Assembly: GCF_011065895.1 (NCBI RefSeq) | Contig: NZ_JAALCR010000015.1 | Location: 124,001-188,000, forward strand | Source: Paludisphaera rhizosphaerae | GTDB taxonomy: Bacteria > Planctomycetota > Planctomycetia > Isosphaerales > Isosphaeraceae | Length of the DNA: 64,000 nucleotides | Direction of reading: 5' to 3' | Shown: positions 41,774 through 51,884 of the stretch, piece by piece | Layout: every line of letters begins with the position of its first letter | Numbering within the stretch: the stretch's first letter is position 1 | The notes under the pieces: model-generated | Database searches by the model: none | Told to the model about the DNA's origin: nothing | What the model saw: only the letters and a program-made list of their open reading frames with translations | Position numbers and translations under genes: made by a program

Positions 41774-43849
41774 CTACGGTTGGACTTCGAGCGGGACCAC
41801 GCGGAGGCCGGGAACCGGGGGCGGCGTGAAACGTGGGAGCATCCCCGGCGGCTGAATGTCCAGAGGGGGCGGGGGGGCGTCCCCCAGGTTTGGCAACCTC
41901 CGCCGGAAGGGGATGATTCCGAACTCGTCCGGAGGGACGGCGAGGCCGTTCGGGTTGGGTGCGAAGGGGGCGATGGGCATCTGGTCGGGAGCCGGAGCCC
42001 AGCCGCCAAGGTTGATGGCGTCCGCCGTTTCTCCGTGAGATCCCAGTTCGTTGGTGCTCTTACCCGTTCTCTGGAGGGTGCCGTCGCCGGCGATCGTTTC
42101 CAGATGCGTCGCCCAGGCGTTCGTGGGGTCGGCGACGGCGGCCAGGGAATAACCACCCGCCGTCTCCTCAATCGACGACCGCGAACCACGGGTCTCCCGT
42201 TCGAGATAACTCACGATCCCACGCGCTCGGCCGACTTCCCCCTTGCTCATCAGAATCTGGGCGCGAAGACACATCCATCGGAGTCGGTCGCGAGGCGTTT
42301 CGGCCGTGGATTCGACGGCGGCCAGAAGCCGCTCGGCGGCGTCGTAGTCCTGGGCGAGGTAGGCGAAGAAGAGGCGGAAGTCTTCAAGTCCGTCTTCTGG
42401 GGCGGCGGGGGGAGACGTCAGCGGACCAGAGGCGAACTTCGCCAGCCGTTTCAATCGGAACTGCCGGGGGTGGAAGCCGCCCAACTCGCCGAGGATCGGC
42501 AGGACCGTCGCTCGCACGCCTTCGCCATCGCCGGTCGGCGACGGGAGCCAGGTCTGCAGGAGATCCAAGGCGCACGACGCAAGGCGGTCCAGCCATCGGC
42601 GGCGGCTCGACAGATCCGGGGCGACGGGGATGGTTTCCTTGGTCGTAAGATCGAACAAGGCGACAAGGCCCGCACCACCGCCGTCATCCACCCGGAACGC
42701 CAGATTCAGGCCGTCCGGCGAGATCGCCGGCGCGCCAAGCTGCAGTCCGCTATCCAGGGGGTGGAACCGGTCGTAGGTGTTCTGACCGACCAGGCTGCAC
42801 CAGCGCATGACCTGTTCCTGCCCGTCGTTGATGAGGCAAACGCCCTGGTCCTGTTCGGCGTCCATGGTCAGGTCGACCCGGGCCGAGCGAGGTCGGGGAT
42901 CTCCTCCCATAGTGGCAGGCCCTCGCATGCGGCCCGGGACGTTCGTCGGCGAGATCGATTCCAGCGTCGAGACGGGCGTCGCATAGCCCCCCTCAAGCCC
43001 GACGCGAACGAGGCTGACGTTCCTCGTTCGGAACGCTCCTCCGCCCGGTCCAGCGATCATCATGAGCGACTGGCCGTCCTGGCCCCAGGCCAGCAGCGAC
43101 GCGGTCAGAGCCGAGGCGTTGACGCGCAGAACCTGGTCGCTCCCTCCAATCGCGGTGAGGAGATGCACCTGAACCGCCGGCTCGGCTTCGGGAACGGGGA
43201 TTTCCTTCAGGAACGCCATCCGCCGCCCATCGGGAGACCACGCCGGCGCGAAGGCTCCATCGAGCGTCAGGGCGGTTCGGCCGTCCGTCAGGTTCACCAA
43301 CCACAGGCCGGCGACGGCTCCCGGTCGGGGGACGGCCACCCGGCGGCCGTCCGGACTGGGGGCGAGTTTCTGACGTGCGATCGCGACGCGGTCCTCAGCG
43401 TTGAGTTCCAGGTCGGCCTCGACGGCGATCGTCTGTCTGCGGTCCAGGCCCGATCGCACGACCACCTCGAATCGACCATGCTGAGTCGATCCCCCTTCGC
43501 CCTCGGTTGGGTTGAATCGGCCGTAGACGAGGGTCCGGCCGGAGGCGACCCAACTCGGCGACGAGAGCGGCTGGGGAGACTCCTCGATCAGGACCGATTC
43601 CCCGCTCTTAATCTCGGTCGCCCAGATCCGGTAGATCCTTTGCGGGACGACGGGAGCCGAGTGCGTCGCGTCGGGTACGCCGCCCGGCGCGAGCATCCAG
43701 CCTGAGGGCAGGGCGGTGGCGTCTGAGCTCTCTACCGTCGTGTAGGCGATCCAGCGGCTGTCGCGGGACCACTCGACCGGAGCCACGGGGGTCGCCGCGA
43801 CGAGCGCGACCGATAGAACGTGTGCGAGTCCTGCGAGACTCGACGACAT
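41774..43849 (-). CDS. Exported PD40/TolB-like beta-propeller protein
   Basis: 691 residues. A signal peptide (LAGLAHVLSVALVAATP) precedes a propeller with repeats such as WSRDSRWIAYTT, PSPDGRRVAVP, WSPDGRRMAFLKE and ISPDGLNLAFRVD (PD40/WD40-like). The C-terminal third contains helical repeats resembling TPR (RLFFAYLAQDYDAAERLL) and a Pro-rich tail. No catalytic domain is visible; it probably binds partners in the periplasm. The ATG at 43849 follows GGAGAG. Confidence 0.8.
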   Translation of the reverse strand: MSSSLAGLAHVLSVALVAATPVAPVEWSRDSRWIAYTTVESSDATALPSGWMLAPGGVPDATHSAPVVPQRIYRIWATEIKSGESVLIEESPQPLSSPSWVASGRTLVYGRFNPTEGEGGSTQHGRFEVVVRSGLDRRQTIAVEADLELNAEDRVAIARQKLAPSPDGRRVAVPRPGAVAGLWLVNLTDGRTALTLDGAFAPAWSPDGRRMAFLKEIPVPEAEPAVQVHLLTAIGGSDQVLRVNASALTASLLAWGQDGQSLMMIAGPGGGAFRTRNVSLVRVGLEGGYATPVSTLESISPTNVPGRMRGPATMGGDPRPRSARVDLTMDAEQDQGVCLINDGQEQVMRWCSLVGQNTYDRFHPLDSGLQLGAPAISPDGLNLAFRVDDGGGAGLVALFDLTTKETIPVAPDLSSRRRWLDRLASCALDLLQTWLPSPTGDGEGVRATVLPILGELGGFHPRQFRLKRLAKFASGPLTSPPAAPEDGLEDFRLFFAYLAQDYDAAERLLAAVESTAETPRDRLRWMCLRAQILMSKGEVGRARGIVSYLERETRGSRSSIEETAGGYSLAAVADPTNAWATHLETIAGDGTLQRTGKSTNELGSHGETADAINLGGWAPAPDQMPIAPFAPNPNGLAVPPDEFGIIPFRRRLPNLGDAPPPPLDIQPPGMLPRFTPPPVPGLRVVPLEVQP

Positions 43850-44238
43850 GGGGGACTCTCCGCCGGGTCGAGGGCGCGTCGCGTTCCCGCGCCTCGTGGA
43901 ACACCGATCTTCGGTGTCGAGGACGACGCTGTTCAAGTATAAGACGGCTGGCGCCGACTTCCTAGTTGAAAGGTCGAGACGCGACGGCTCGCAGAACCAT
44001 CCTGGAACAGAGGACGGATGGTCCATGTGTTTGACCGTCGGCCTGCAGGTTGTATCCTTCCGGGAACGGGTTACGTCCGTCGCCCCAGGCTGCGCCGCTG
44101 GGCCTGGTCCTTGAAGGAGGGCCAGGCCGAGGATAAGATGCGGGGTCGTCGACGGCGGACGCCCCGACGCTTCGAATCCCGGCCGGCTCGAGAGTCGGGC
44201 CCCTCCAGAGTCTCGCCTTCTTGAATTCGGGAGCTTCC

Positions 44239-44766
44239 ATGCGTTTCGTCCTGATCGACCGGATCGTCGACGTTCAACCCGGCCGTTCGCTGCACGCCGT
44301 CAAGAACCTGTCGCTCGCCGAGGAATATCTGGCCGACCACTTCCCTGGATTTCCGGTTATGCCCGGGGTCCTGATGCTGGAGGCTCTGACTCAGGCCGGC
44401 GCGTGGCTCCTTCGGGACATGGAAGACTTCGCGAACAGCATCATTCTGCTGAAGCAGGCCAAGACGATCAAGTACGGAAGCTTCGTCGAACCTGGTCGGC
44501 AGCTTGAACTTAAGGTCGAGCTGATCTCCGACGCCGCCCCCGACGCCACGTTCAAGGCCGTCGGCGTGATCGACGGCCAGGAGATGGTCAAGGGCCGGAT
44601 CATCCTGACCAGATACAACCTCCGCGACAAGAACCCGCATCTGCACGCGACCGACGCTTCGATTGTGGCTGGGCTTCGCGATCTTTACGCCACCTTGCGC
44701 AAAGGATCGGTCGGCGCCCGCGCGATCTCTCGGACGCCAGAGCCTGCGGGCGTCAAGCTCATCTGA
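44239..44766 (+). CDS. FabZ-like 3-hydroxyacyl-ACP dehydratase 1
   Basis: 175 residues, a single hotdog-fold dehydratase. HFPGFPVMPGVLMLEALTQA carries the catalytic His34 and Glu48 of FabZ. Family role: removal of water from 3-hydroxyacyl-ACP during chain elongation. The C-terminal 35 residues exceed the usual FabZ length and are unassigned. It is the first gene of a co-directional set with an ACP, a second dehydratase, two ketosynthases, a hydrolase and a GH3 protein. GGAG precedes the ATG at 44239. Confidence 0.88.
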   Translation: MRFVLIDRIVDVQPGRSLHAVKNLSLAEEYLADHFPGFPVMPGVLMLEALTQAGAWLLRDMEDFANSIILLKQAKTIKYGSFVEPGRQLELKVELISDAAPDATFKAVGVIDGQEMVKGRIILTRYNLRDKNPHLHATDASIVAGLRDLYATLRKGSVGARAISRTPEPAGVKLI

Positions 44767-45121: not shown

Positions 45122-45508
45122 ATGCCCGCATACGAAGAAATCTTCGACAAGGTCCAGTCCACGCTCGTCGACGCTCTTGGCGTGGACGAAGAGGACGTCA
45201 CTCGCGAATCGACCCTCCAGGGCGATCTGGGAGCCGAGTCGATCGACTTCCTCGACATCGTTTTCCGTCTCGAGCGGAACTTCGGGATCAAGATCCCCCG
45301 CGGCGAGCTCTTCCCGGAGAACCTGGTCGCCGATCCCGAGTGGATCGCCGACGGCAAGCTCACGCCGAAGGGCGTCTCCGAGCTGAAGGCCCGCCTGCCG
45401 TTCGCCGACCTCTCGAAGTTCGAGGCTGATCCGGACGTCGAGAAGATGGGCGATCTGTACACGGTCGACATGCTCGTCCATTACGTCCAGAGCAAGCTGG
45501 CCGCCTGA
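45122..45508 (+). CDS. Acyl carrier protein with internal insertion
   Basis: 128 residues against about 77 for a housekeeping ACP. GAESIDFLD contains Ser40, the phosphopantetheine site, in the usual helix II context (LGAESIDFLDIVFRLER). After that, about 47 extra residues (around 65-105, including ELKARLPFADL) lie before the last helix (YTVDMLVHYVQSKL). The insertion could be a docking surface for the partner ketosynthases. It carries the growing acyl chain as a thioester. Confidence 0.9.
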   Translation: MPAYEEIFDKVQSTLVDALGVDEEDVTRESTLQGDLGAESIDFLDIVFRLERNFGIKIPRGELFPENLVADPEWIADGKLTPKGVSELKARLPFADLSKFEADPDVEKMGDLYTVDMLVHYVQSKLAA

Positions 45509-45642
45509 CCATCGCGGCCGACCGCCCCACCAGCCCGGAACGGCCGCGGCCCTTGTCATGGGCCGCGCGTCCGGCGACTGGGCGTGTGGGGGACCGGCCT
45601 CTCCTTCTCCACCTTCCCCCTGGCCCGGCGGCGCGCCCGATC

Positions 45643-46191
45643 ATGCGATGGATCTGGATCGATAAATTCACGGAGTTCCGGAGCGGTCAGTTCGCGCGAG
45701 CGATCAAGAACCTGACCCTTGCCGAGGAACACCTGCACGACCACTTCCCGGGATTTCCGGTCATGCCCGCCTCCCTCATCATCGAGGGGCTGGCGCAGAC
45801 GGGGGGCATCCTGGTGGGCGAAGCCAGCGGCTTCGCGGAGAAGGTCGTGCTCGCCAAGCTCCCTCGCGTCGAGTTCTTCGGCGTCGCCTGCGCCGGCGAC
45901 CAGTTGACCTACGAGGTGACGCTCACCGATCTGCGGTCCGAAGGGGCTGTCGTCGACGCCAAGGCGTTCCTGAACGGCGAACTCCTCTGCGACGCCGAGA
46001 TCGTTTTCGCGCACCTGGACAATACACGGGCCAACCAGATTTTCGGCCCCAAGAACTTCGTTTTCACCCAGCAGCTCCTTGGGGTCCTGGACCTCGCCAA
46101 GGCGCAACAGCGGGCCAAAGAGCAGGCGGACGCGTCCGCCGATGGTCAGGCCAACGGCGAGCCCACCACGCCGACTCCCCCCCAGGGTTGA
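45643..46191 (+). CDS. FabZ-like 3-hydroxyacyl-ACP dehydratase 2
   Basis: 182 residues, hotdog fold. HFPGFPVMPASLIIEGLAQT keeps His34 and Glu48, so it is likely active, though PGV has become PAS next to the active site. It is a paralogue of the dehydratase at 44239 with the same N-terminal layout (KNLTLAEE). The C-terminal 40 residues are Gln/Ala/Pro-rich. The ATG at 45643 gives a domain start matching the paralogue; upstream frame is Arg/Pro-rich. Confidence 0.88.
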   Translation: MRWIWIDKFTEFRSGQFARAIKNLTLAEEHLHDHFPGFPVMPASLIIEGLAQTGGILVGEASGFAEKVVLAKLPRVEFFGVACAGDQLTYEVTLTDLRSEGAVVDAKAFLNGELLCDAEIVFAHLDNTRANQIFGPKNFVFTQQLLGVLDLAKAQQRAKEQADASADGQANGEPTTPTPPQG

Positions 46192-46314: not shown

Positions 46315-47637
46315 ATGGTTGGTCTTGAACGCCGCGTGGTCATCACCGGTCTGGGATTCGTGACGCCCCTGGGCGATACGCCAGAGACGCTCTGGGAGCG
46401 GATCTCCGCCGGCCAGGGTGCGCTTCGGCGGATCGAAGAGTTCCCCGTCGCGGGGCTCCCCAACGACGTCGTCGCTGAGATCCGGGGCTTCGACTTCATC
46501 AAGGGCTACGCCCTACCCAAGTTCCGCAAGACGCTGGCCAAGAGCCGCAAGTACATGGCCCGCGACATCCAGCTCGCGGTGGCTGCGGCCCAACGCGCCA
46601 TGAGCGACGCGGGACTCGTGGACGGCGGCGTCGATCCGACGCGGATCGGCATCGACCTGGGCGCCGGCCTGATCTCGACGGACCTCGACGAGCTGGCTCC
46701 GGCCATCACGATGGCCACCGAGAAGACGGGCCAGTTCGAGTTCCCCGTCTGGGGAAAGGAAGCCATCGGCGTCATCGAGCCGATCTGGCTTCTGAAGTAC
46801 CTGCCCAACATGCTGGCCTGTCACATCTCGATCCTGATGGACTGCCAGGGGCCCAGCAACACGATCACGGAGGCGGACTCGTCCTCCAACCTCGCCATCG
46901 CCGAGGCCGCCCGGATCATCGCCCGCGGCAAGGCTGACGTGATGATCACCGGCGGGGCCGACTCCAAGATCCATCCGCTCAGTCTGACCCGGATGGCCCT
47001 GTACAACACGATGTCGCGCTGGGAAGGAGAGCCCTCCGCGGGCCTCCGCCCGTTCGACGCTCGCCGCGACGGCACGCTTCCCGGCGAGGGGGCTGGCATT
47101 CTGATCATCGAGGAACTTGGTCACGCCCTTCGACGCGGGGCCAAGATCCACGGCGAGATCCTCGGCGCCGGTTCGGGCTGCGACGCCGTTCCGACCGGGG
47201 GGCTGGACCCGCAGGGCGGGGGGACCGAGATCGCGGTCAAGGCCGCACTCCGCGAGGCTCGTATCAAGCCCGAGGACGTCGGCCACGTCAACGCCCACGG
47301 CGCGGGCTTCAAGGTTGGCGACCTCGCCGAGGCTCGGGCCTTTGAGCGGGTCTTCGGCAAGGGTGCTGTGCCGGTCACCGGCCTGAAGGGCTACCTGGGG
47401 AACATCGCGTCGGGAGCGGGGGCTGTCGAGCTGATCTCCAGCCTCGTCGGCGTGAACCGGGGCCTGATCCCCCCCACGCTCAACTGCGAAGAGGTCGATC
47501 CGGCGTGCCACGTCGACGTCGTGACGGCCGCTCCCCGGCCGACCGACAATCCCATCTTTGTTAACACCAACGTCACCATCAACGGGCAGGCCTCGGCCGT
47601 CGTGGTCAAGGGCGGGCCGATCGCCCCCGAGGGCTGA
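46315..47637 (+). CDS. Ketosynthase-like protein lacking catalytic Cys and one His (KS-beta/CLF-like)
   Basis: 440 residues with the thiolase-like fold of beta-ketoacyl-ACP synthases (RRVVITGLGFVTPLGDT). At the nucleophile, the TACTS-type motif is replaced by ITEADSSSN, giving Asp188. The first His is kept (NAHGAG, His328), but the second (GH in FabF) is Asn363 in YLGNIASGAG. A Cys-less ketosynthase beside an intact one is the hallmark of KS-beta or chain-length factors of type II polyketide synthases, where the pair works as a heterodimer. I infer that role here. Confidence 0.88.
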   Translation: MVGLERRVVITGLGFVTPLGDTPETLWERISAGQGALRRIEEFPVAGLPNDVVAEIRGFDFIKGYALPKFRKTLAKSRKYMARDIQLAVAAAQRAMSDAGLVDGGVDPTRIGIDLGAGLISTDLDELAPAITMATEKTGQFEFPVWGKEAIGVIEPIWLLKYLPNMLACHISILMDCQGPSNTITEADSSSNLAIAEAARIIARGKADVMITGGADSKIHPLSLTRMALYNTMSRWEGEPSAGLRPFDARRDGTLPGEGAGILIIEELGHALRRGAKIHGEILGAGSGCDAVPTGGLDPQGGGTEIAVKAALREARIKPEDVGHVNAHGAGFKVGDLAEARAFERVFGKGAVPVTGLKGYLGNIASGAGAVELISSLVGVNRGLIPPTLNCEEVDPACHVDVVTAAPRPTDNPIFVNTNVTINGQASAVVVKGGPIAPEG

Positions 47638-47707: not shown

Positions 47708-49006
47708 ATGCGGCGGGTCGTCGTCACAGGAATGGGAATGGTCACCCCGGTCGGCGGGGACGTTGAGTCGACCTGGCAGGCGCTGCTGGCCGGCAAGAGC
47801 GGCGTCGGGCCGATCTCGCACTTCGACGCTCGCACCTTCCCGACCCGGATTGCCGCCGAGGTGAAGGATTTCGACCTCTCGCGGTATCTCGACGACGCCG
47901 ACCGCTGGGCCGAATACTCGCGGAACACGCGGTTCGCCCTGGCCGCCGGCAAGATGGCGATGGACGACTCGGGGCTGACCGAGTGTCAGGACCTGGACCG
48001 TTCGCGGTTCGGCGTCTATCTCGGCGCGGGCGAGGGGCAGCAGGACTTCGGCCGATTCGTCAAGCTCGTCTACAAGTGCACGAAGGGAGTGGGCGACTCC
48101 CATCTGAAGGTCTCCGAGTCGGAGTTCACCCGGCTGGGCGTCGACAACCTGCACGTCAGGCACGAATCCGAGCAGGAACCGGGCACGCCGGCCGCTCACC
48201 TGGCAGCTCGGTTCGGCGCTCGGGGAGCGAACTCGAACTGCCTCACGGCCTGCGCCGCCAGCTCGCAGGCGATCGGCGAGGCGTACGAGATGATCCGCCA
48301 CGACTGCGCCGACGTGATGCTCTCGGGCGGCACTCATAGCATGATCCACCCTTTCGGCGTCACGGGCTTCATCCTGCTTACGGCTCTCTCGACTCGCAAC
48401 GACGAGCCCCAGAAGGCGAGCCGCCCGTTCGATCGCGAGCGTGATGGATTCATCATCGGCGAAGGGGCGGGCATGCTCGTGCTCGAGGAGCTTGAGCACG
48501 CCAAGGCTCGGGGCGCGAAGATCTACGGCGAGCTTGTCGGCTACGGCTCCACGGCCGACGCGTTTCGGATCACTGACAGTCACGAAGACGGCCGCGGGGC
48601 GATCGCCTGCCTGCGTGAGGCTCTCGACGGCGCTGGGTTGGCTCCCGAACAGATCGACTATATCAACGCTCACGGGACCAGCACGTCGGTCAACGATTCC
48701 GTTGAGACCCTGGCGATCAAGAAGACCTTCGGTGAGACCGCCTATAAGGTCCCCATCTCGAGCACCAAGAGCATGATGGGCCACCTGATCGCCGCCGCCG
48801 GCAGCGTCGAGGCCATCGTCTGCCTCCTGACGATTCGCGACGGCGTCCTCCCTCCCACGATCAACCTGGACAACCCCGACCCCGACTGCGACCTCGACTA
48901 CATTCCCCACGAGGCTCGTAAGAAGCACGTCGACGTCGCGCTTTCCAACAGCTTCGGCTTCGGCGGCCAGAACATCACCCTCATCTTGAAACGCTACACC
49001 GACTGA
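47708..49006 (+). CDS. Beta-ketoacyl-ACP synthase (FabF-like KS-alpha)
   Basis: 432 residues. The intact catalytic triad is Cys182 (LTACAASSQ), His322 (INAHGTSTSVND) and His359 (KSMMGHLIAAAG), with the conserved Lys before the second His. It performs decarboxylative Claisen condensation of malonyl-ACP with an acyl chain. An insertion around residues 135-160 (DNLHVRHESEQEPGTP) is larger than in FabF. It lies 70 bases after the Cys-less ketosynthase gene and probably forms a heterodimer with it. Confidence 0.92.
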   Translation: MRRVVVTGMGMVTPVGGDVESTWQALLAGKSGVGPISHFDARTFPTRIAAEVKDFDLSRYLDDADRWAEYSRNTRFALAAGKMAMDDSGLTECQDLDRSRFGVYLGAGEGQQDFGRFVKLVYKCTKGVGDSHLKVSESEFTRLGVDNLHVRHESEQEPGTPAAHLAARFGARGANSNCLTACAASSQAIGEAYEMIRHDCADVMLSGGTHSMIHPFGVTGFILLTALSTRNDEPQKASRPFDRERDGFIIGEGAGMLVLEELEHAKARGAKIYGELVGYGSTADAFRITDSHEDGRGAIACLREALDGAGLAPEQIDYINAHGTSTSVNDSVETLAIKKTFGETAYKVPISSTKSMMGHLIAAAGSVEAIVCLLTIRDGVLPPTINLDNPDPDCDLDYIPHEARKKHVDVALSNSFGFGGQNITLILKRYTD

Positions 49007-49074: not shown

Positions 49075-50163
49075 GTGACCGGCCTCTCTACCTTGCTTGT
49101 CATCCTGGTCGTCGTCGCGCTGATCCCCGTGGTGGTCTTCGGCGGCTTCCTGCTGTTCTGCATCTGGATGTACTGCCCGGTCATTCGGCGAATCTTCGAA
49201 GAGCGGCCGATGTTCATGCCGCTGAAGCTCACTCCCGAGGACGTCGGCGAGGCGGCCTCGTTCAAGACGGGCGACGGCTTGACCCTCCAGGGGAGCTACT
49301 TCAAAGCCCGTACCGACTCTCGGGTGGGCGTGCTCGTCTACTGCCACGAGTTCCTCAGCGACCGCTGGAGCTACGCCCCGTACCTCGACCATCTGCGCGA
49401 CCGCGGTTTCGACGTCTTCAGCTTCGATTTCCGCGGCCACGGCGAAAGCGCCTCGGAGCCCGGCTACGATCCGCTCCAGTACGCCTCGGATCGTGAGGTC
49501 GACGACCTCCAGAGCGCCCTCGCGTATCTTCGGACTCGTCCCGACCGCGACCTGTCCGGCTACGGCCTGTTCGGCGTCAGCCGCGGGGGCGGTACGGCCC
49601 TGCTGGTCGCCGCCGACGAACCCGACGTCTGGGGCGTCGTCACCGACGGCGCGTTCGCGACTCGCGGCACCATGACCGCGTACATCGTCCGCTGGGCTGA
49701 GATCTTCGTCCGGGTCAAATGGTTCCTGAAGCTCGTTCCCCGTTTCATCTTCGCCATCCTCGGCGACGTGGCTCGGGCCGGCACGGAGCAGCAGCGAGGC
49801 TGCAACTATCCCAGCATCGAGCGTGCGGTTTCCCGTCTCACGCCCCGCCCTTGGCTCCAGATCCACGGCCAGCGCGACGTCTACATCGGCGTCGACATCG
49901 CCCGCGAGTTCTTCTCGTGGGCCGGCGAGCCGAAAGAGCAATGGCTGGTCGCCGACGCCAAGCACAACCGCTGCCGGGAGACGGCTCCCGAGGAATACTC
50001 GCTCCGCCTGGCTGAGTTCGTCGACCTCAACGCTCCTCGGCGTCCGCTCATCGACGCCGAGGACGAACCGGCCGCGACCGATTTCCGTAAGTTCTCCGCC
50101 GTCGAGGGCCGGATCGTCGGCGGCGGCCTGATGACCAACGTCGCCTCCCCCGTCACCGGCTGA
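49075..50163 (+). CDS. Membrane-anchored alpha/beta hydrolase
   Basis: 362 residues, GTG start after GGGAG. A strong N-terminal membrane helix (LLVILVVVALIPVVVFGG) is followed by an alpha/beta-hydrolase domain: oxyanion region VYCHEFLSD, DFRGHGES, nucleophile elbow GVSRGG (Ser), a later acid near QIHGQRDVYIG and the His in DAKHNRC. Within the cluster it could be a thioesterase or acyl-transfer enzyme that releases the ACP-bound chain at the membrane; this is inference. Confidence 0.82.
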   Translation: MTGLSTLLVILVVVALIPVVVFGGFLLFCIWMYCPVIRRIFEERPMFMPLKLTPEDVGEAASFKTGDGLTLQGSYFKARTDSRVGVLVYCHEFLSDRWSYAPYLDHLRDRGFDVFSFDFRGHGESASEPGYDPLQYASDREVDDLQSALAYLRTRPDRDLSGYGLFGVSRGGGTALLVAADEPDVWGVVTDGAFATRGTMTAYIVRWAEIFVRVKWFLKLVPRFIFAILGDVARAGTEQQRGCNYPSIERAVSRLTPRPWLQIHGQRDVYIGVDIAREFFSWAGEPKEQWLVADAKHNRCRETAPEEYSLRLAEFVDLNAPRRPLIDAEDEPAATDFRKFSAVEGRIVGGGLMTNVASPVTG

Positions 50164-50189: not shown

Positions 50190-51884
50190 ATGCTCAGGTT
50201 CATCAAGCGGCTCGTCGGCCGCCCGATCGCGAACCGCGCCCGTCGCCTCGCCGGCGAATTCCTCCAGCAGACGGAGCAAGCCGGCAAGGTTCAGCGCGAC
50301 CTGCTCCTGTCGCGGATCGCGCGCAACGCCGACAGCGACTTCGGGCGCGACCACCACTTCGCCGAGATCCGCACCCCGGAAGACTTCCGCCGCCGCGTCC
50401 CCATCGGCGATTACAACCGCCACGAACCTTATATCGACCGCGTGCGAAACGGCGAGGTCTCGGCCCTCTTCGGTCCCGGGACCGAAGTGCTCATGTTCGC
50501 GATGACCTCGGGGACCACCAATCGTCCCAAGACGATCCCCGTCACCCGCGAAGCTCTTCAAGACTATCGCGAAGGCTGGCTCGTCTGGGGGATCCAGGCG
50601 TTCGACGCGCATCCCGACATGATCCAGGACGGGATGCGCCCAATCCTTCAGATCGCCAGCGATTGGCGTGAGAGCTACACGACCGCCGGCATCCCCTGCG
50701 GCGCGATCACCGGCCTCACGGCCTCGATGCAGAACCGGATGGTGCGGACGACCTACTGCATGCCCCCCTCGGGATCTCGGATCAAGGACGTCGAGTCGAA
50801 GTATTACGTCGCCCTCCGATACTCGATCTACAAGAACTTGGGGACGATCATCGCGGCCAACCCCAGCACCATCCTGAACATGGTCCGGCTCGGCGACCGC
50901 GAGCGCGAGACCCTCGTCCGCGACCTCTACAATGGGACGCTCGATCCCAAGTGGGCGGTCCCCGACGACGTCCGCCGCGAGATTCGCTTCCGGACGCGGA
51001 TTCGTCGCAAGGAGACAGCCCGACGACTGGAGTCGATCATCGCCGAGCACGGCCGACTCCTCCCGCGCGACTACTGGCCCAACCTGGAGTTCCTCTCCAA
51101 CTGGATGGGAGGAACGATGCGGGCCTATCTCAGGGGCTACCCTGAGTTCTTCGGCGAGAAGCCCGTGCGGGACGTCGGCCTGATCGCCTCCGAGGGCCGG
51201 ATGACGATCCCAATCGAGGACGGGACGCCCGCCGGGGTGCTCGACATCCGCCACCACTACTTCGAGTTCATCCCCGAGGAAGAAGCGGAGAAGCCCGACC
51301 CCCAGACCGTCGAGGCCGTCGATCTCGTCGAGGGGAAGAACTACTTCATCCTCCTGACGACGGCCGGCGGGCTCTATCGCTACAACATCTTCGACCTCGT
51401 TCGCTGTGTGGGGTTCCACGGCGAGGCGCCGGTCGTCGAGTTCCTGAACAAGGGGGCGCATTTCTCCAGCATGACTGGGGAAAAGCTATCCGAACATCAG
51501 GTCATCACGGCCGTCGAGACGGCCCAGCGGTCGGTCGGGCTTCGGCTGCGGTCGTACCTCCTGCTCCCCATCTGGGGCGATCCTCCTGCGTATGGGATCC
51601 TGGTGGAGAACTCCGACCTTCCCGACGACGAGCGAGCCGACAGGTTCGTCGCCGCGGTGGAGGATCAGCTCCGAACGCTTAACGTGGAGTATGCGGCCAA
51701 GCGAGACAGCCTCCGTCTCGGCCCTCTCCGCACGATCCGAATCCAGGACGGCGGCTGGGGCGAATTCCAGAAACGGCGGCTCGCCCGCAGCGGCGGAACA
51801 GTCGAACAGTATAAGCAGCCGCACCTGATCCCCGACGTTGAGGCTATTCACGCCTTCCCGATCGTCGCGACGATCAATTCCTGA
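50190..51884 (+). CDS. GH3-family acyl-adenylating enzyme
   Basis: 564 residues. GH3 proteins are ANL-type adenylating enzymes best known in plants for joining amino acids to auxin and jasmonate. Here MTSGTTNRPKTIPVT is the phosphate-binding loop, GLIASEGRM and YRYNIFDLVRCVGF correspond to the adenylate-binding and hinge motifs. The likely reaction is activation of a carboxylic acid as acyl-AMP and transfer to an amine or thiol. It starts 26 bases after the hydrolase, so it belongs to the same transcript. Its partner acid is unknown. Confidence 0.88.
   Translation: MLRFIKRLVGRPIANRARRLAGEFLQQTEQAGKVQRDLLLSRIARNADSDFGRDHHFAEIRTPEDFRRRVPIGDYNRHEPYIDRVRNGEVSALFGPGTEVLMFAMTSGTTNRPKTIPVTREALQDYREGWLVWGIQAFDAHPDMIQDGMRPILQIASDWRESYTTAGIPCGAITGLTASMQNRMVRTTYCMPPSGSRIKDVESKYYVALRYSIYKNLGTIIAANPSTILNMVRLGDRERETLVRDLYNGTLDPKWAVPDDVRREIRFRTRIRRKETARRLESIIAEHGRLLPRDYWPNLEFLSNWMGGTMRAYLRGYPEFFGEKPVRDVGLIASEGRMTIPIEDGTPAGVLDIRHHYFEFIPEEEAEKPDPQTVEAVDLVEGKNYFILLTTAGGLYRYNIFDLVRCVGFHGEAPVVEFLNKGAHFSSMTGEKLSEHQVITAVETAQRSVGLRLRSYLLLPIWGDPPAYGILVENSDLPDDERADRFVAAVEDQLRTLNVEYAAKRDSLRLGPLRTIRIQDGGWGEFQKRRLARSGGTVEQYKQPHLIPDVEAIHAFPIVATINS

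What the first reader, a model, noticed from the sequence alone, without database searches (positions are those of the whole stretch)
46315..47637. Ketosynthase with Asp at the nucleophile and Asn at the second His
Alignment by eye with FabF puts Asp188 at the catalytic Cys and Asn363 at the second His, while the first His (His328) and the Lys before the second site remain. The known chain-length factors usually have Gln at the Cys site; Asp is unusual. The change predicts loss of condensation but possible decarboxylase-like or structural activity. The GAC codon is clear in the sequence (46876-46878).
Basis: partly seen in the sequence, partly recalled or inferred. Interest (0 to 1): 0.65.

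Follow-up and report, generated by a model that had tools for sequence, protein, structure and literature searches.

The report
Acidic, Cys-less ketosynthase partner in planctomycetes
This gene encodes a fatty-acid-type ketosynthase that has lost its catalytic cysteine for an aspartate; its relatives in planctomycete bacteria nearly always keep an acidic residue there and occur together with a normal ketosynthase, so it is probably a non-catalytic partner subunit, much like the chain-length factors of polyketide makers but of separate origin.

Summary
In the 440-aa ORF at 46315-47637, Asp188 aligns with the nucleophilic Cys of E. coli FabF, with His328, Lys358 and Asn363 at the first His, the Lys and the second His. 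This is a family trait: Cys-less sequences form one clade of 86 tree tips (84 Asp or Glu, none Cys), in which Asp and Glu swapped often. Its sister group keeps Cys and already has the same interface motif.

An intact ketosynthase (KSalpha) lies directly downstream. In 246 planctomycete genomes the Cys-less gene and KSalpha occur together in 34; five more have a Cys-bearing counterpart with KSalpha; two lack KSalpha; none has KSalpha alone. The usual setting is a FabZ-(FabG)-ACP-FabZ-KSbeta-KSalpha operon, often with an alpha/beta-hydrolase and a GH3 ligase. In 43 of 80 named loci, however, the gene stands apart from KSalpha, and some paralogues sit beside the housekeeping fabF.

Most likely it is a non-condensing partner subunit working like a chain-length factor (CLF), of independent origin. 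The heterodimer, chain-length control and product are inferred. Asp and Glu at this site in two Rhodopirellula baltica paralogues were printed in 2009; the conserved family, operon and partner are the addition.

The parts
46315..47637 (+). KSbeta: FabF-fold protein, 440 aa, Asp188 at the nucleophile site, His328, Lys358, Asn363
46876..46878 (+). GAC codon of Asp188 at the FabF Cys163 position
   Evidence: column check against E. coli FabF
46780..46827 (+). conserved beta motif P156-I-W158-L-L-K161-Y162-L-P-N-M-L-A-C169-H170-I at the FabF 131-146 stretch; W158 at FabF Phe133
   Evidence: W in 128 of 128 beta rows and 10 of 10 Cys-bearing sister rows
47708..49006 (+). KSalpha: intact FabF-type ketosynthase with Cys-His-Lys-His
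   Evidence: (TIGR03150, 520.4 bits, cut-off 493.75)
45553..46191 (+). FabZ2: FabA/FabZ-like dehydratase with the His and Glu of the FabZ motif (motif recalled); listed ORF, the true start may be internal
45122..45508 (+). ACP, 128 aa, phosphopantetheine Ser in GAESID
44221..44766 (+). FabZ1: FabA/FabZ-like dehydratase; listed ORF, the true start may be internal
49075..50163 (+). alpha/beta-hydrolase (possible release or transfer enzyme); no significant BLASTP match to this genome's OlsI
50190..51884 (+). GH3-family protein, probable acyl-amide ligase, paralogue of OlsH (100 bits against a 620-bit cut-off)

Best explanation
KSbeta is a non-condensing partner subunit of the intact KSalpha encoded next to it. 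Shown by sequence: loss of the nucleophile in one ancestor, an acid nearly always kept since, loss of the gate loop, tandem or same-genome pairing with KSalpha, and an operon with ACP and dehydratases. Inferred: the two form a heterodimer across the FabF-type interface. KSalpha does the Claisen condensation on the operon's ACP. KSbeta's invariant Trp158, at the place where FabF puts Phe133 into the partner's acyl tunnel (recalled, not from a call), helps set the tunnel's end and so the chain length. The acid at 188 is not a nucleophile; it more likely makes a buried hydrogen-bond or ion pair with the mostly retained Lys and His, holding the dead site closed. With two FabZ (and FabG in several lineages) and no enoyl reductase seen in the operon, the product would be a hydroxylated or unsaturated acyl chain, handed on where present to the hydrolase and GH3 ligase.
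For: Site: 30 of 30 best loci D or E, window included; 124 of 128 later. Tree: Cys-less rows form one clade of 86 (E 47, D 37, S 1, N 1; SH-aLRT 99), sister to 7 Cys-bearing KS, then 36 KSalpha, all Cys; a mixture-model tree of 45 rows agrees (beta 100/99). Gate loop lost: Phe400 kept in 7 of 123, while Lys335 is kept in 115. Pairing: beta is followed directly by KSalpha in 36 of 80 named loci, one more ends inside beta. Per genome, of 246: Cys-less beta with KSalpha 34, Cys-type beta with KSalpha 5, beta alone 2, KSalpha alone 0. Interface: where FabF has I108, V134, S136, I138, KSalpha has Glu in 72, 73, 70 and 70 of 78 rows; beta has L/M/F at 134, K/R at 136 (126 of 128) and L at 138. The model's Z to the actinorhodin CLF (1tqy_B, 58.7) ties with many FabFs.
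Against: No complex was modelled: the folding tool takes single chains. In 43 of 80 named loci beta is not followed by KSalpha. In five loci an acidic paralogue lies beside the housekeeping fabF on the same strand (L061, L066, L090, L095, L141) and in L147 3.4 kb from it, so there the partner could be FabF. Basic 136 also occurs in 11 of 17 other KS rows, so only the acidic KSalpha side is unusual, and KSalpha of lineage f20 lacks most of those acids. His1 is kept in 99 of 123, more than a purely structural part might need.
Confidence: 0.7

Rival explanations
1. KSbeta is not tied to KSalpha: it is a homodimer or ACP-binding protein with a function of its own, or a partner of other ketosynthases such as the housekeeping FabF.
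For: In 43 of 80 named loci it lies away from KSalpha, in several among unrelated genes. Acidic paralogues lie beside plsX/fabD/acpP/fabF-type genes in L061, L066, L090, L095 and L141. Genomes G038 and G186 (family f2) carry two acidic paralogues.
Against: KSalpha is still present in 16 of 16 genomes of the window's class, and the interface motif is kept in stand-alone copies too (W in 128 of 128).
Confidence: 0.15
2. The acid is catalytic: KSbeta decarboxylates malonyl-ACP to supply primer or extender units, in the way the Gln of KSQ domains is held to support decarboxylation (recalled).
For: First His and Lys are mostly retained (99 and 115 of 123).
Against: The second His is H in only 30 of 123, and the gate Phe (7 of 123) and Thr270 are lost; a negative charge should repel malonate (inference).
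Confidence: 0.07
3. KSbeta is a true CLF of the type II polyketide family by descent, whose Gln has drifted to Asp/Glu.
For: Same logic (Cys-less KS beside an intact KS) and same fold as 1tqy_B. With a simple model the joint clade is not rejected (p-AU 0.08).
Against: Actinobacterial CLFs group with their own KS, and holding beta with the CLFs is rejected under a mixture model (p-AU 0.003). The closest relatives of beta keep Cys.
Confidence: 0.06
4. Decaying pseudogene or sequencing error.
For: Only that a catalytic residue is missing.
Against: Intact frame, confident fold, acid conserved over a whole clade.
Confidence: 0.01

Closest known systems
Rhodopirellula baltica FabF paralogues RB3714 and RB4527 (Rattray et al. 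2009, PMC2649909)
   Same: Planctomycete KS paralogues with Asp and Glu at Cys163, first His kept (Table 2, section 9 read). RB4527 has Lys and Asn at the other two sites, as here. Probably the same family, but their sequences were not compared.
   Different: RB3714 has Ile for the Lys and keeps the second His. Reported as deviations in a study of ladderane synthesis; the passages and section I saw do not place them in an operon or with a KS partner.
Chain length factor (CLF/KSbeta) of type II polyketide synthases, e.g. actinorhodin CLF 1tqy_B
   Same: Cys-less KS-fold subunit encoded beside an intact KS and an ACP; Lys335 position kept.
   Different: Asp/Glu instead of Gln, first His usually kept (Asp in the 4 CLFs), gene order beta before alpha (CLF follows KS), separate branch in the tree.
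KS-CLF of highly reducing type II PKS (ishigamide Iga11-Iga12, aryl polyene ApeO-ApeC)
   Same: KS pair with ketoreductase, dehydratase and ACP (paper passages).
   Different: Those CLF sequences were not compared here.
AmcF-AmcG (KS-CYF) of cispentacin synthesis (PMC10698177)
   Same: A KS that works as a heterodimer with a partner lacking the KS motifs (passages).
   Different: CYF lacks some secondary structures of CLF; KSbeta here is full length.
FabF (KASII)
   Same: Fold and overall sequence (305.5 bits to TIGR03150).
   Different: Below the 493.75-bit cut-off; nucleophile, second His and gate loop changed.

Membership tests
FabF beta-ketoacyl-ACP synthase II (TIGR03150) | Score above the curated cut-off | tested here: not met
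   305.5 against 493.75 bits; the neighbour KSalpha scores 520.4
FabF beta-ketoacyl-ACP synthase II (TIGR03150) | Cys-His-His catalytic triad | tested here: not met
   Asp-His-Asn
FabF beta-ketoacyl-ACP synthase II (TIGR03150) | Ketosynthase fold | tested here: met
   Z 56.9-62.3 over 397-412 aligned residues in the 50 listed entries
CLF of type II PKS | Cys-less KS-fold subunit next to an intact KS | tested here: met
   KSalpha at 47708-49006
CLF of type II PKS | Gln (usually) at the nucleophile site | tested here: not met
   Asp here; D or E in 124 of 128, Gln in 1; the CLFs have Gln in 3 of 4
CLF of type II PKS | Common descent with actinobacterial CLFs | tested here: not met
   p-AU 0.003 with a mixture model on 45 rows; p-AU 0.08 with LG+G4 on 62 rows, so not decisive under the simpler model; four CLFs, all actinobacterial
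CLF of type II PKS | Obligate heterodimer with KS and control of chain length | not testable with these tools
   single-chain folding only; needs biochemistry
KSQ-type decarboxylase | Gln at the nucleophile with both His kept (recalled) | tested here: not met
   Asp188, Asn363; second His kept in 30 of 123 homologues
OlsH/OlsI ornithine-lipid synthesis (flanking GH3 and hydrolase) | GH3 above the OlsH cut-off; hydrolase related to OlsI | tested here: not met
   100.4 against 620 bits; BLASTP E 1.6 to the genome's own OlsI. The OlsH-OlsG-OlsI operon is on another contig

The most novel reading that the evidence does not exclude
A second, independent invention of the CLF principle: in Planctomycetota a tandem pair of active ketosynthases (a state still seen in lineage f20) became a one-active, one-dead heterodimer, and the dead site was locked by an acid that selection defends by charge (Asp and Glu freely swapped). 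It would belong to a dedicated, widespread reducing type II synthase whose acyl product, passed on in some lineages to a GH3 amide ligase, is unknown; a paralogue of the dead subunit may even have been recruited to the housekeeping FabF.
Probability: 0.45. Interest if true: 0.65.

Novelty: new variant of a known kind. Interest (0 to 1): 0.45.

Why it matters
It gives a natural series for how an active ketosynthase turns into a non-catalytic partner: the same operon with two Cys enzymes in one lineage and a Cys-less partner in the others. That makes testable what the dead subunit of such pairs is for, and why an acid rather than Gln is kept. It also marks an uncharacterised acyl-chain pathway: KSbeta and KSalpha are found in 16 of 16 sampled genomes of the window's class.

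Tried and rejected
One search read minus-strand loci in the wrong orientation; its rows for those loci are invalid and were redone. Another Cys as nucleophile: Cys169 and Cys177 sit at FabF Gly144 and Leu152, not at the site, and position 152 is mostly Ala in homologues. OlsH/OlsI identity of the flanking genes: rejected; the genome has a separate OlsH-OlsG-OlsI operon. Likeness to the rhizobial very-long-chain fatty acid cluster (recalled): not followed up. Linking KSalpha Glu108 to the pocket acid Asp113 of Iga11 (passages): the paper is not held and the positions were not matched. A relation of Asp versus Glu to the state of the two His: none apparent by eye in the table. Print searches; of the papers I opened, only Rattray 2009 states the Asp/Glu change. 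FabZ residue counts include cross-hits between dehydratases, so no figure is claimed from them. Rows dropped: the survey left out sequences whose BLAST alignment ran through a stop codon (beta of L066, L080, L096 and L136, the last read again as L150; all E at the site), and searches also rows of 380 aa or fewer and near-copies; two KSalpha fragments (L137, L139) fell into the 17 'other' rows.

Full report
Observation. The ORF at 46315-47637 (+) is intact and 440 aa long. Pfam finds both halves of a ketoacyl synthase. Against E. coli FabF, Asp188, His328, Lys358 and Asn363 fall on Cys163, His303, Lys335 and His340 in the usual numbering. Asp188 is encoded by GAC at 46876-46878. The AlphaFold model built with 37 sequences has mean pLDDT 93.1; its listed PDB matches are mostly FabFs, Z 56.9-62.3, with the actinorhodin CLF 1tqy_B at Z 58.7.

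Surroundings. On the same strand lie FabZ1 (44221-44766), ACP (45122-45508), FabZ2 (45553-46191), KSbeta, KSalpha (47708-49006), an alpha/beta-hydrolase (49075-50163) and a GH3-family protein (50190-51884). KSalpha scores 520.4 bits against the FabF model (cut-off 493.75); KSbeta scores 305.5.

Residue survey. The first search covered 40 genomes and its best 30 loci, the window's own included, have D or E at the site in 30 of 30. With loci from a 246-genome phylum sample and fetched stretches, 128 distinct beta rows have E 63, D 61, S 2, N 1, Q 1. Two caveats. In some searches most rows were assigned to beta by having D, E, N or S at the site, so the absence of Cys there is partly by definition; the independent test is the tree. 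And rows whose BLAST alignment ran through a stop codon were dropped; the four distinct beta loci lost that way which I re-read (L066, L080, L096, L136) are all E.

Tree. In a tree of 144 representatives (pairwise under 75% identity, IQ-TREE quick, LG+G4), the Cys-less rows of planctomycetes form one clade of 86 (E 47, D 37, S 1, N 1; SH-aLRT 99), with no Cys inside. Its sister is a group of 7 Cys-bearing KS, and outside these lies KSalpha (36 rows, all Cys; 99). The label D needs at least 17 changes and E 18 on that tree; well-supported branches alone force 11 each. A mixture-model tree of 45 rows gives beta 100/99, sister 100/97, alpha 100/99. Actinobacterial CLFs group with their own KS. 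Holding beta and CLFs together is rejected with the mixture model (p-AU 0.0034) but not with LG+G4 on 62 rows (p-AU 0.082). Only four CLFs, all actinobacterial, were used.

What else changed. Of 123 beta rows, His303 is H in 99, Lys335 is K in 115, His340 is H in 30 and N in 72, Phe400 is F in 7, and Gly402 is kept in 122. FabF 131-145 has become a strict motif: P131, W133, L138, P139, N140, M141 and H145 in 123 of 123; W133, L138, P139, N140, M141 and H145 in 128 of 128 of the larger set. The ten Cys-bearing sister rows share W133, L138, P139, N140 and M141 (10 of 10), so this motif is older than the loss of Cys. Of 78 KSalpha rows, Glu is found at 108 in 72, at 134 in 73, at 136 in 70 and at 138 in 70. 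Beta has K or R at 136 in 126 of 128, but so do 11 of 17 other KS rows, so the basic side alone is not special. In lineage f20 KSalpha lacks most of these acids.

Operon and pairing. In the 80 named loci beta is followed directly by KSalpha in 36, and one more locus ends inside beta; in the other 43 it is not (recounted by script). In those 37, FabZ2 lies upstream in 37, ACP in 36, FabZ1 in 33 and a FabG-like gene in 16. Of the 36, the hydrolase is found in 30 (four of the six others run into a contig end) and GH3 in 25. Two FabG-like genes (L051, L103) were checked with Pfam. Six of the ten loci fetched around a KSalpha that is not next to beta (L174, L199-L207) show FabZ1, ACP, FabZ2 and KSalpha with no beta between FabZ2 and KSalpha.

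A result that complicates the picture: some acidic paralogues lie beside the housekeeping fatty acid genes instead. In L061, L066, L090, L095 and L141 a fabF-like gene with acpP, in L066, L095 and L141 also fabD and plsX, precedes beta on the same strand, and in L147 such genes lie 3.4 kb away (PlsX and FabD of L066 also by Pfam). There beta might pair with FabF. I did not test this.

Co-occurrence. In the 246-genome phylum sample I took beta as present at E below 1e-110 and KSalpha at E below 1e-150, cut-offs set after seeing the gaps, and looked at the four f9 genomes separately. KSalpha and a Cys-less beta occur together in 34 genomes. The site was read in 31 of these: 29 have D or E (G028 also has a second copy with S), G069 has N and G263 has Q; G205, G218 and G274 were not read. 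Five f20 genomes have KSalpha with a Cys-type beta. Beta alone is in 2 (G111 and G128, incomplete assemblies with beta at a contig end and N or S at the site), KSalpha alone in 0, neither in 205. Related genomes are not independent, so this is no significance test. In f20, five of five loci carry two adjacent Cys-bearing KS; in the three whose flanks were read, FabZ1, ACP and FabZ2 precede them.

Mechanism. What is shown is loss of the nucleophile and gate, an acid kept since, and lasting presence with an active KS. A heterodimer in which KSalpha condenses and KSbeta supplies the far wall of the tunnel follows from the biology of KS-CLF pairs (PMC12664062, passages: obligate heterodimer, channel at the interface sets chain length). 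That FabF Phe133 reaches into the partner's tunnel is recalled and not from a call. The role of the acid as a structural charge is inference from free D/E exchange with rare N, S or Q.

Product. The operon codes for KS, ACP, two dehydratases and, in several lineages, a ketoreductase-like protein; I saw no enoyl reductase in it, though only 8 window proteins and 20 of 123 predicted flanking ORFs of other loci were given to Pfam. This resembles highly reducing type II PKS (passages). The neighbouring GH3 is a paralogue of OlsH, which makes N-acyl ornithine in Singulisphaera acidiphila, the hydrolase OlsI then adding the second acyl chain (PMC12493201, abstract and section 4). The OlsH (995 bits), OlsG and OlsI of this genome lie on contig C23, so the window's GH3 may join an acyl chain to some other amine. 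This is a lead, not a result.

Prior art. Rattray et al. 2009 (PMC2649909; passages, section 9) list R. baltica paralogues with Asp163 and Glu163, both with His298. A 2023 catalogue reports KS-CLF pairs in Planctomycetes among 14 phyla (PMC10132072, passages). My searches, limited to open-licence papers, brought up no description of the family, its operon or its partner that I saw in listings or opened passages. The finding is therefore real, partly printed, and best rated as a new variant of a known kind.

Noticed in passing
L214:5044-8192 (G000:C23:10043-13191): The window's genome carries an OlsH-OlsG-OlsI ornithine-lipid operon (995, 363 and 438 bits, each above its cut-off), separate from the window's GH3-hydrolase pair.
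   Followed up: yes
L061, L066, L090, L095, L141, L147: Acidic KSbeta paralogues lie beside or near the housekeeping plsX/fabD/acpP/fabF-type genes, so a second Cys-less subunit may serve ordinary fatty acid synthesis.
   Followed up: partly
L196:8809-9978 (-): One beta homologue (G263) has Gln at the nucleophile site, as CLFs do, with Gly, Arg and Glu at the other three positions.
   Followed up: partly
L138, L194, L195: Lineage f37 has Asn or Ser at the site instead of an acid, and Asn or Asp at the first His.
   Followed up: partly
L126-L130, L152-L154: Lineage f20 keeps two adjacent Cys-bearing KS in the same operon position: a natural ancestral-state control.
   Followed up: partly
L165:4981-6249 (G000:C6): A second KSalpha-like protein (66% identical to the window's KSalpha) in the same genome, with none of the operon genes found in the 11-kb stretch read.
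   Followed up: no
L164 (G000:C5:194915-196192): A Cys-bearing paralogue in the window's genome belongs to the sister group of the beta clade and shares most of its interface motif.
   Followed up: partly
window 41774-44026 (-): A 750-aa ORF on the opposite strand just upstream of FabZ1 has a homologue in the same place and orientation in many loci of the window's family; function not examined.
   Followed up: no
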